Shown here: positions 44,835 through 46,980 of the stretch, one piece after another
Layout of the letters: the number at the start of each line of letters is the position of its first letter
Position numbering within the stretch: the stretch's first letter is position 1
NCBI GenBank assembly: GCA_019244165.1
Contig: JAFATA010000074.1
Location: 1-64,000 of the forward strand
Length of the DNA stretch: 64,000 nt
Direction: 5' to 3'
Source of the DNA: Pseudonocardiales bacterium
Lineage (GTDB): Bacteria; Actinomycetota; Actinomycetes; Mycobacteriales; Pseudonocardiaceae
Program-made: the position numbers and the translations under genes
Notes under the pieces: model-generated
Told to the model about the DNA's origin: nothing
The model's database searches: none
The model's input: only the letters and a program-made list of their open reading frames with translations

Positions 44835-45971
44835 CTAGGCCAGGCTCACGTGCTGCCCGTGCGGGGTGATGGTGAACTGCCAGCGCGTGGCGGCGGGTCG
44901 GCCGAGCTGTTCCCATCGGTGGTAGGCGGTGGTGATCTCGTCCCAGAGTCGCCGTGGCCCGAACTGGTGCACGGGCCAGCGTCGGGTTCCGGGGTGGTAG
45001 TCAAACCGCGCCCAGGATCGGGATCGTGGGTCAAGGAACCATACGCACCAGTGGCCGTCGTCATCGGTGGCGGCCACGTACTCGACATGGCAATCGGACA
45101 CCTGAAGTGCGACCGCGAAGGGTGCGTCGTCGTTACCGACGTAGGAAGCGTGCAAGTCGGTGTCGCTGACTTCGGGGATGTCCGTGTCGCGCACCACCTC
45201 GGTGATCTCGGGTCGGGGAGTTCGCTGGTCGCGCAGTTCCATGAACGAGATGGTGGTGTTGATGAGTCCCCCGGTGGCCGTGCCGTCGGAGTTGACGCTC
45301 AGCGACAGCAGCCCGGCCGGCTTGTAGGCGCTACCCCAAGGGGTGACGACCAGCCCACCTGGCCGGGTCTGCGCCACCCACGCATAGGGCACCCGGGGTG
45401 CGGCGGCGGTGGGGAGCACCCGATCGAACGGTGCCCCGGCGGGGTGGCCGTGCGCCCCGTCACCGGTGAGCACGGTGACCTCGCCGTACCCGGCGGTGGC
45501 GAGCGCGGCCTGGGCCCGCGCCGCCAGGAGGGGGTCGACTTCGATCGTCGTGACGTTGCTGGCGCCGAGGTAGTGCGCCAGCAATGCGGCGGTGTAGCCG
45601 GTGCCTGTGCCGATCTCCAGTACCCGCATTCCCGGCTGAACCTGTCCGGCTTGCAGCATCAGGGCGACAATGTCCGGACGTGAGGCCGAACTGGTCGGTA
45701 CCCGGCCGCGCCCATCAGGGCCGGCTGGGCTGCCGTCGTCGACCTGAGTGATCACGTAGCGAGGCCCGTATGCCCGGCGCAACCACTCCTGCGGGTCCTC
45801 CGCGCGGTGCAGCGCCACCAGATCGTCCCCGTCGCGGCGCCAGATCACCTCGGGAATGAATACTTCCCGGGGCACCGCCAAAAACGCCGCCCGCCACGGC
45901 TCGCCGAGCACTCCCTCCGCCGTCAGGTCCTCCACCAGCTCAGCCCACGAGGGTGGCGCCGTTGTGGTCAC
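44835..45971 (-). CDS. PIMT-type O-methyltransferase of the RiPP-associated group
   Basis: 378 aa from GTG 45971. Residues about 85-235 form a protein-L-isoaspartate methyltransferase fold: motif I VLEIGTGTGYTAALLAHYLG, then TTIEVDPLLAARAQAAL and VTVLTGDGAHG. A C-terminal extension of about 140 residues ends TRWQFTITPHGQHVSLA, the kind of tail (TV.P.GQ.VWL) found in methyltransferases of FxLD lanthipeptide, graspetide and imiditide clusters, not in repair PIMTs. The start overlaps the stop of a 45-codon gene. It probably methylates an aspartate of that peptide. Confidence 0.85.
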   Translation of the reverse strand: MTTTAPPSWAELVEDLTAEGVLGEPWRAAFLAVPREVFIPEVIWRRDGDDLVALHRAEDPQEWLRRAYGPRYVITQVDDGSPAGPDGRGRVPTSSASRPDIVALMLQAGQVQPGMRVLEIGTGTGYTAALLAHYLGASNVTTIEVDPLLAARAQAALATAGYGEVTVLTGDGAHGHPAGAPFDRVLPTAAAPRVPYAWVAQTRPGGLVVTPWGSAYKPAGLLSLSVNSDGTATGGLINTTISFMELRDQRTPRPEITEVVRDTDIPEVSDTDLHASYVGNDDAPFAVALQVSDCHVEYVAATDDDGHWCVWFLDPRSRSWARFDYHPGTRRWPVHQFGPRRLWDEITTAYHRWEQLGRPAATRWQFTITPHGQHVSLA

Positions 45972-46105
45972 TTCTTGTCCTGGTCATCGTCGGTGTCCGG
46001 TTTCCCGTGCTTGCCACCAGGATCCTCAGCCGGTATCGGCCGATGAGGGTCGTGCCCGTTCCCCACGTACTTGTCTTGGGGGTCTTGTTTCTCGTGTTTG
46101 CCCAC
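45968..46105 (-). CDS. Candidate RiPP precursor peptide (imiditide-like), 45 aa
   Basis: GTG 46105 with GAGGG 8-12 bases upstream; TGA at 45970-45968 overlaps the methyltransferase GTG (GTGA). The peptide has 45 residues: nine Asp, seven Lys, four His, two Glu, one Arg, and no Cys, Ser or hydrophobic leader. It starts GKHEKQDPQDKY, the centre reads GNGHDPHRPIP, and the end is DTDDDQDKK. It has no family I can name. Translational coupling to a RiPP-type PIMT makes it the likely substrate. Which Asp is modified cannot be told. Confidence 0.65.
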   Translation of the reverse strand: MGKHEKQDPQDKYVGNGHDPHRPIPAEDPGGKHGKPDTDDDQDKK

Positions 46106-46322
46106 GGTGTTTTCCCTCGCGGCGTTTGTTAGCAGGACGGATCAGGGTGTTACGGTGCGATACCATCATCCGACGACCGGCTCGGCGACGTTCCGTCGTC
46201 CTCGGGGGAGCCTGGCTGGTGGTCAGTGACCTTGCCCCTTATCGGCGACGGCCCGCCGTGCGCCAGCTCACCGAGCAGGCCGCTGGACTCCTCACCTCCT
46301 CGGAGGCGAGCGGAGTAGCGGA

Positions 46323-46757
46323 TCATGGTACGAGCAGCTGGGCCTTGGCCCCGACTGCTAGGTAGGTCGATGCCGCCCGCCGATCCATGGTGACGAGTGG
46401 TCGGCCCGCAGCTGCAGCGGCTGCGCCGACGAGTGCGTCGTACACGGCACCGCCGATGATGTCTGCTCGGGCGAACAGCTCCAGCAGAACCTCGGCCTGC
46501 GGTGCTGGCAGCGGCGCCCAGCCGAGGAACGCTCGCTGCATCAGCTCCAAGGCTTCAGAACCGGTGCGTCGGATCGCACCAGGAAGCCGGGTGAGGACTG
46601 AGTAGGTCTCGAACCATGCGTGTCCAGCGAGACCCACCGCATTGCTCGTGACCAAGCGGAGCGCGGCCGCGTGGTGCTCGTGGTCGGCCACCAAAGCCGG
46701 GATCGCGATGCTGGTGTCGAGAAGCAACGAGACAGGCAGCTCACCGGCGGGTGGCAT
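46323..46757 (-). CDS. vapC: PIN-domain ribonuclease toxin VapC
   Basis: 144 aa from ATG 46757. The PIN acidic residues are visible in LLLDTSIAIPALV (first Asp), the AWFETYSVLTRLP Glu, ADIIGGAVYDALV (Asp) and VTMDRRAASTY (Asp). It would cleave RNA when freed from its antitoxin. It overlaps vapB by 17 bp. The 217 bp between its end and the peptide gene hold only a short GGAGG-type hairpin. Confidence 0.9.
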   Translation of the reverse strand: MPPAGELPVSLLLDTSIAIPALVADHEHHAAALRLVTSNAVGLAGHAWFETYSVLTRLPGAIRRTGSEALELMQRAFLGWAPLPAPQAEVLLELFARADIIGGAVYDALVGAAAAAAGRPLVTMDRRAASTYLAVGAKAQLLVP

Positions 46758-46980
46758 CACGGAGCGCCCGTACCTGGTCAGCGGTGAGCGGTTGACCAGT
46801 GGGAGCAATGACGAGGATGCCTGCTTCCTCAGCCATCGGCACGCGTTCGGTGACCGGTGTCACGACGACCGAGCCGTCGCTCTCGATCACCTCGACCTCA
46901 CTTCCCGTGTGCAGCGCCAGCCTGTCCCGAATCGCCTTCGGGACAACAACGCGACCACCAGCGTCGACCGTAGTACGCAT
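46741..46980 (-). CDS. vapB: AbrB/SpoVT-type antitoxin VapB
   Basis: 79 aa from ATG 46980. The N-terminal swapped-hairpin DNA-binding domain reads MRTTVDAGGRVVVPKAIRDR. The C-terminal part (ILVIAPTGQPLTADQVRAL) wraps the toxin. No ribosome site is seen, but TATCCT lies 6 bases before the ATG, so the message is probably leaderless. Antitoxin-first order with overlapping toxin is standard. Confidence 0.9.
   Translation of the reverse strand: MRTTVDAGGRVVVPKAIRDRLALHTGSEVEVIESDGSVVVTPVTERVPMAEEAGILVIAPTGQPLTADQVRALRDATRR

What the first reader, a model, noticed from the sequence alone, without database searches (positions are those of the whole stretch)
44835..46105. Minimal two-gene RiPP candidate: charged 45-aa peptide coupled to a PIMT-type methyltransferase
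A 45-codon gene overlaps the methyltransferase start by GTGA, so the two are made together. The methyltransferase has the C-terminal extension typical of RiPP-associated PIMTs rather than repair enzymes. No lanthipeptide, lasso or ATP-grasp gene is next to it. A PIMT plus a highly charged linear precursor is the arrangement described for imiditides, where one Asp is methylated and closes to an aspartimide. This peptide is mixed-charge, with an Asp-rich end and a GNGHDPHRPIP centre, so it may represent a distinct branch. The pairing is seen; the chemistry is inference.
Basis: partly seen in the sequence, partly recalled or inferred. Interest (0 to 1): 0.78.

Follow-up and report, generated by a model that had tools for sequence, protein, structure and literature searches.

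The report
Asn-coded branch of imiditide peptides
A soil actinobacterium carries a two-gene peptide-plus-methyltransferase unit of a known kind, but where its relatives encode the aspartate thought to be modified, this branch encodes asparagine followed by glycine, which could reach the same chemistry by spontaneous ageing.

Summary
In detail: a 45-codon gene overlaps, by GTGA, a 378-aa PIMT-type methyltransferase with the C-terminal domain and WXXXGXP motif of RiPP-associated enzymes (PAMTs). Peptides of the same design lie at the start of 16 PAMT genes in this genome and of many in other actinobacteria, and peptide and enzyme are under purifying selection. So the arrangement is the known imiditide / type I pamtide one. 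What is unexpected is the substrate. Relatives share a central Asp-Gly (a few Asp-Ala), the likely modified Asp; the window peptide has Asn-Gly there, and three of its nine Asp precede Pro, which cannot form an aspartimide. Asn-Gly is kept in 10 peptides from four species of one uncultured Pseudonocardiales genus, through synonymous codon changes, with one Asp-bearing peptide inside the clade. Best mechanism: Asn-Gly deamidates spontaneously to succinimide/isoAsp, which the PAMT methylates and recycles. Site homology and selection are shown; the chemistry is inferred. The mass test must change (about +1, -17, +15 Da relative to the Asn peptide, not +14/-18). The genome is also unusual: 60 PIMT-family hits in 3.7 Mb and 16 graspetide ATP-grasp loci, each next to a PAMT.

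The parts
45968..46105 (-). charged 45-aa precursor peptide gene (GTG start)
   Evidence: homologues; dN/dS
46055..46060 (-). codons for Asn16-Gly17 (AAC GGG), the position that is Asp-Gly in most relatives
   Evidence: for the DNA; alignment A2; codons in relatives
44835..45971 (-). 378-aa PIMT-type methyltransferase (PAMT) with C-terminal domain; WEQLGRP near the C-terminus fits WXXXGXP
45968..45971 (-). GTGA overlap of the peptide stop and the PAMT start
46114..46118 (-). GAGGG, ribosome-binding-site-like, 8 nt before the peptide start
   Evidence: read
45978..45981 (-). AGGA, ribosome-binding-site-like, inside the peptide gene, 6 nt before the PAMT start
   Evidence: read

Best explanation
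The two genes are a divergent branch of the imiditide / type I pamtide kind: a linear charged precursor and one PAMT. In this branch the residue homologous to the modified Asp is Asn, always followed by Gly. The peptide is made with Asn16-Gly17; this pair deamidates spontaneously through a succinimide (aspartimide) to isoAsp and Asp; the PAMT, an enzyme type reported to accept isoAsp as well as Asp, methylates the carboxylate so made and drives it back to the aspartimide. End states are thus the same as in the Asp relatives, but entry is delayed by a non-enzymatic step, which could act as a timer. Shown here: the gene pair, its homology, the Asp-to-Asn change at the conserved site, retention of Asn-Gly under purifying selection, an intact PAMT. 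Inferred: that Asp-Gly is the modified site in this family, deamidation in the cell, isoAsp methylation by this enzyme, any timing role.
For: Alignment A2 of 30 hand-picked peptides: site is D in 21 and N in 9, next residue G in 27 and A in 3. Close matched contexts differ at that residue: L249 (another genus) YTGDGHDPSRPVP against L112 YTGNGHDPNRPVP and window YVGNGHDPHRPIP; L013 RKRQSDGQVP against L125 RKRQSNGQVP. PAMT tree of 60 rows (2 of 62 dropped as under 250 aa; states assigned by hand): the 9 Asn rows need 2 changes, shuffled mean 8.6, 0 of 500 as low; they form a 10-row clade (SH-aLRT 91) with one Asp row, L013, inside; the window's 6-row clade has support 100. A tenth Asn-Gly peptide, L302, was found by peptide profile. 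Asn is AAC or AAT and Gly GGG, GGT or GGA among nine of these genes, so the pair is held at protein level. Between the charged ends no Asp that could cyclise is common to the ten; L125 has none there at all. Outside the genus 5 of the 7 best class-wide relatives have Asp-Gly, none Asn-Gly at the site. The genus's graspetide precursors keep Asp-Gly: 17 of 19 candidates found in 31 rows, none with Asn-Gly there. Asn-Gly is the fastest-deamidating pair, half-life of days in unstructured peptides (PMC4682632, passages). PAMTs OlvSA, ThfM and AmdM methylate isoAsp substrates (PMC13001092). Precedent for Asn/Asp exchange at a kept isoAsp site: ribosomal protein uS11 encodes Asn-Gly in bacteria and Asp in archaea and eukaryotes (PMC7550191, passages).
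Against: No experiment. That Asp-Gly is the modified site rests on conservation; I could not see which Asp is modified in SpaA, and the review says the modified Asp of NmaA is followed by His, not Gly. The window peptide still has six Asp not followed by Pro, and two of the ten Asn-Gly peptides (L011, L130) have an Asp-Gly in the acidic tail. Days-long deamidation is slow against growth, and no deamidase or other gene is shared next to the Asn-Gly loci. The 10-row clade has support 91, below the star level. Some peptides of the wider family lack the central Asp-Gly altogether (L020, L021, L141, L255), and an orphan peptide L303 has neither, so the site is not indispensable.
Confidence: 0.5

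Rival explanations
1. Ordinary imiditide in which the PAMT methylates another Asp of this peptide (N-terminal D11 or the acidic tail), and Asn16 is only a structural stand-in.
For: Six of nine Asp are not followed by Pro; L011 and L130 have Asp-Gly in the tail; in NmaA the modified Asp is followed by His, so Gly is not required.
Against: No such Asp is at a conserved position across the ten Asn-Gly peptides, whose tails differ in length and order, while Asn-Gly is kept in all ten.
Confidence: 0.25
2. The branch has lost the modification: Asn at the site is a natural knock-out, and the PAMT binds the peptide as a partner or acts on something else.
For: Asn cannot be O-methylated; one locus (L302) keeps the peptide while its PAMT is reduced to two short remnants; charge-based peptide binding by the enzyme is described for NmaM.
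Against: PAMT dN/dS stays 0.17-0.39 in the 18 pairs, Asn-Gly pairs included; E[IV]GTGTG and WXXXGXP are present in the window enzyme; Asn is always followed by Gly, and one member carries Asp again.
Confidence: 0.15
3. The PAMT here has returned to PIMT-like repair: it holds the peptide as Asp by removing isoAsp that forms at Asn-Gly, and the active form is the Asp or Asn peptide.
For: Asn-Gly is a classic repair substrate; repair PIMTs methylate isoAsp (PMC13001092).
Against: The enzyme keeps the C-terminal domain and groups with Asp-modifying types, not with repair enzymes; a dedicated repair enzyme for a 45-aa peptide would be odd.
Confidence: 0.07
4. Not a gene: the 45-codon frame is a chance ORF upstream of a methyltransferase.
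For: GC-rich DNA is full of chance frames (98 ORFs of 40 aa or more listed in 11 kb).
Against: Homologous peptides at the same place in 16 loci of the genome and in other genera; purifying selection in 18 of 18 pairs.
Confidence: 0.02

Closest known systems
Imiditides / type I pamtides (NmaA-NmaM, SpaA-SpaM)
   Same: Two genes, linear precursor of about 45 aa rich in Gly, Pro, Asp and charged ends, one PAMT with C-terminal domain and WXXXGXP, no other RiPP enzyme.
   Different: The published class is defined by a conserved Asp that is methylated; here the homologous residue is Asn followed by Gly. I did not see the NmaA or SpaA sequences, so identity to them was not measured.
Asp-Gly paralogues in the same genome and in L249, L162, L165, L170, L310
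   Same: Same peptide design M(G/S)KH ... xGxxP ... P(x)GKHxK and adjacent PAMT.
   Different: Asp instead of Asn at the central site.
Group 13 graspetides with PAMT (graspimiditides)
   Same: Same enzyme family, TIGR04188; 16 such ATP-grasp loci in this genome.
   Different: No ATP-grasp gene at the window locus; precursors there are of another type, with Asp-Gly.
Repair PIMT (Pcm / PCMT1)
   Same: Catalytic domain; isoAsp from Asn-Gly would be its classic substrate.
   Different: Window enzyme has the extra C-terminal domain and a dedicated translationally coupled peptide.
isoAsp119 of ribosomal protein uS11
   Same: A functional isoAsp whose codon is Asn-Gly in bacteria and Asp in archaea and eukaryotes (PMC7550191, passages).
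   Different: Not a RiPP; its forming enzyme is unknown.

Membership tests
imiditide / type I pamtide | PIMT homologue of the RiPP clade with a C-terminal extension | tested here: met
   TIGR04188 over residues 12-375, though 335 bits against a cut-off of 380; model and 1DL5 match; WEQLGRP
imiditide / type I pamtide | two-gene unit without another class-defining RiPP enzyme | tested here: met
   ten neighbouring ORFs scanned with Pfam; no shared third gene at Asn-Gly loci
imiditide / type I pamtide | precursor of about 45 aa rich in Gly, Pro, Asp with charged ends | tested here: met
   45 aa; 6 Gly, 6 Pro, 9 Asp counted
imiditide / type I pamtide | highly conserved Asp near Pro/Gly as the modification site | tested here: not met
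   Asn16 at the homologous site; hence a divergent branch, not filed as a regular member
imiditide / type I pamtide | aspartimide or isoAsp formed by the PAMT | not testable with these tools
   needs mass spectrometry
imiditide / type I pamtide | recognition by charge-charge contacts (acidic loop in the C-terminal domain) | tested here: inconclusive
   acidic ATDDDG stretch in the C-terminal domain, not tested for binding
type II pamtide / cysimiditide | two CXXCXGXG motifs in the precursor | tested here: not met
   no Cys in the window peptide
graspetide, lanthipeptide or lasso peptide with PAMT | class-defining enzyme in the cluster | tested here: not met
   the 16 ATP-grasp loci lie elsewhere, none on contig C4
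housekeeping PIMT | no C-terminal extension, no dedicated peptide | tested here: not met

The most novel reading that the evidence does not exclude
Asparagine-coded imiditides: a RiPP branch in which a spontaneous reaction, Asn-Gly deamidation, is the genetically encoded first step of maturation and the PAMT only acts on its product, so that the peptide carries a built-in delay. Asn and Asp would be evolutionarily exchangeable at the site because both routes meet at the same succinimide.
Probability: 0.4. Interest if true: 0.8.

Novelty: new variant of a known kind. Interest (0 to 1): 0.6.

Why it matters
The function of the aspartimide in these peptides is an open question in the 2026 review (PMC13001092). 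A branch that swaps the very residue that defines the class, keeps Asn-Gly, and in one case has Asp, is a natural experiment: it can tell whether methylated Asp, aspartimide or isoAsp is the state that selection keeps, and whether PAMTs work on deamidation products. A genus with dozens of PAMT loci of two RiPP types also gives many matched enzyme-substrate pairs for specificity work.

Tried and rejected
Chance ORF: rejected by conservation and dN/dS. Lanthipeptide, lasso, graspetide or Cys-type pamtide at the window locus: rejected. A third conserved gene such as a deamidase, protease or transporter beside the Asn-Gly loci: ten stretches compared, shared ORFs were the PAMT, the peptide or frames overlapping them, except one upstream gene shared by C54 and C50 only, plus one weak 31% match; that gene gave only a TPR match below its cut-off. 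Promoter scan: none found. PAMT residues special to the Asn branch: ten positions are fixed in the 6-row clade and seen in at most 2 of 51 Asp rows, but the three other Asn rows mostly do not share them, so no specificity residue is claimed. Profile search of solved structures found only the catalytic domain of PIMTs for this enzyme. Paper searches for Asn-coded substrates: terms imiditide/aspartimide/PIMT, pamtide/imiditide/aspartimidylat/graspimiditide, asparagine deamidation+RiPP+isoaspart (none), asparagine/methyltransferase/imiditide/Asn-Gly, lanthipeptide+deamidation+isoaspartate+asparagine; and find in two papers. None described an Asn-coded imiditide, but the original imiditide paper (JACS 2023) is not in the library and supplements could not be read, so prior report is not excluded. 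The only encoded Asn found was Asn83 of SsfA, a spontaneous side site.

Limits: the genome is a draft of 87.95% completeness and 4.41% contamination. Family, order and class searches scored only 6, 4 and 4 candidates per genome, so further copies may be missed. The 116 auto-picked peptides (of 193 PAMT records) include some spurious ORFs; the tree used 62 rows chosen by hand, leaving out many Streptomyces and other peptides of different design. L312 had no assignable site.

Full report
What is there. On the minus strand of the window a 45-codon gene (45968-46105) overlaps a 378-codon methyltransferase gene (44835-45971) by GTGA. Pfam finds PCMT in the enzyme; the best NCBIfam model is TIGR04188, methyltransferase of ATP-grasp peptide systems, over residues 12-375 but under its cut-off (335 of 380 bits). 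All 16 members of my alignment A1, taken from the window's genome, match the same model. The predicted structure is confident (91.7); the best solved match is T. maritima PIMT 1DL5, the one solved PIMT that the pamtide paper names as having this C-terminal domain, but with rmsd 7.7 over the whole chain. Neighbours with Pfam matches are panB downstream and a PIN-domain gene upstream, then NlpC/P60, F420 oxidoreductase and APH; none makes a RiPP.

One of many. In the window's own genome (3.74 Mb draft) PF01135 gives 60 matches, all over the cut-off, and the window enzyme 62, some being pieces of one gene. At E up to 1e-20 the window enzyme finds 48 in this genome, and 38, 17, 13, 11, 4, 2, 1, 1, 1 and 0 in the ten other genomes of the genus (11 genomes). 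Sixteen PAMT loci here have a charged peptide of the window's design at their start. Another group stands beside ATP-grasp genes: TIGR04187 gives 23 matches, which are 16 loci (some in pieces) plus one weak match, and each of the 16 lies within about 400 nt of a PAMT hit. Contig lengths tie three relatives of the genus to records titled 'MAG: Pseudonocardiales bacterium'.

The peptide family. Peptides beside PAMTs of this genus and of Streptomyces, Actinomadura, Pseudonocardia and others share a start M(G/S)KH, a centre with Asp-Gly, then Pro, and often a (G)GKH and a charged tail. Of 116 auto-picked peptides 94 contain Asp-Gly somewhere; this list includes a few spurious ORFs and peptides of other design. 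In 30 hand-picked and aligned ones the site is Asp in 21 and Asn in 9, followed by Gly in 27 and Ala in 3. [quoted passage not shown]

Asparagine at the site. The window has Asn16-Gly17. So have L010, L011, L012 of the same genome, L111, L125, L130 and L302 of G003, L112 of G006 and L094 of G008: ten peptides, four species. All ten read N-G-x-x-P. Matched pairs differ at just this residue in otherwise similar stretches: L249 (another genus) YTGDGHDPSRPVP and L112 YTGNGHDPNRPVP; L013 RKRQSDGQVP and L125 RKRQSNGQVP. On a PAMT tree of 60 rows the nine Asn rows need two changes (shuffled mean 8.6; 0 of 500 as low): one 10-row clade, support 91, holding one Asp row, L013. The simplest reading is one change to Asn and one back. 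Among 18 gene pairs dN/dS is 0.08-0.45 for the peptide and 0.17-0.39 for the PAMT; the Asn codon varies AAC/AAT and the Gly codon GGG/GGT/GGA in the nine genes looked at. Relatives at 70% identity or more were found only in G000, G003 and G006. Of seven best class-wide relatives outside the family, five have Asp-Gly, L315 does not, and L312 could not be assigned. The genus's graspetide precursors show Asp-Gly in 17 of 19 candidates and no Asn-Gly at that place (31 rows looked at).

Mechanism. Asp followed by Pro cannot cyclise, so D8, D19 and D28 are out; this is general chemistry, not a call. Asn itself cannot be O-methylated. Asn-Gly deamidates fastest of all pairs, in days in unstructured peptides (PMC4682632, passages), by way of the very succinimide that PAMTs make from Asp. 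PAMTs of three RiPP pathways also methylate isoAsp (PMC13001092, parts 1-3 of 5). I therefore propose deamidation first and PAMT recycling second. An exact parallel for exchange of Asn and Asp at a kept isoAsp site is uS11: Asn-Gly in bacteria, Asp in archaea and eukaryotes (PMC7550191, passages).

Against it. The site assignment rests on conservation; NmaA's modified Asp is followed by His. Six Asp of the window peptide remain possible; L011 and L130 have an Asp-Gly in the tail. Some peptides of the wider family have no central Asp-Gly (L020, L021, L141, L255), L303 has neither and no PAMT hit in the 5 kb fetched around it. L302 keeps the peptide although its PAMT is two short remnants. Deamidation is slow, and no helper gene is shared.

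Verdict. Observation confirmed; class right; the implied chemistry at an Asp not supported at the conserved site. A new variant of a known kind. Paper searches found no Asn-coded imiditide in the held library, which lacks the first imiditide paper.

Noticed in passing
whole genome G000: 60 PCMT-family matches in a 3.7 Mb draft; two of 11 genomes of the genus (G000, G003) have 48 and 38 close PAMT matches while others have 0-17: an uneven burst of copies.
   Followed up: partly
G000, 16 loci listed: Sixteen graspetide-type ATP-grasp loci each beside a PAMT, several in pieces; precursors with Asp-Gly in an acidic C-terminal end.
   Followed up: partly
L302 (G003:C9:36462-36587, -): Intact Asn-Gly peptide followed by a PAMT reduced to two short remnants.
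   Followed up: partly
L015 (G000:C71) against L136 (G003:C127): The G000 peptide frame breaks near its C-terminal end while the orthologue is open throughout; real decay or a sequencing error.
   Followed up: no
L303 (G000:C25) and L305, L308: Peptides of the same design without a PAMT hit in the stretch fetched; L303 lacks both Asp-Gly and Asn-Gly at the centre.
   Followed up: no
L235 6890-7285 and L237 6537-7571: Two of the Asn-Gly loci share an upstream gene of unknown function (88% identical over 128 aa), suggesting duplication of a larger block.
   Followed up: partly
window 46323-46808 (-): PIN-domain gene (VapC-like by recall) upstream of the pair; no partner antitoxin was looked for.
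   Followed up: no
L219, L221, L225, L234: Close PAMT relatives of the window enzyme in Actinomadura and Frankia lie beside Cys-rich type II pamtide-like peptides.
   Followed up: no
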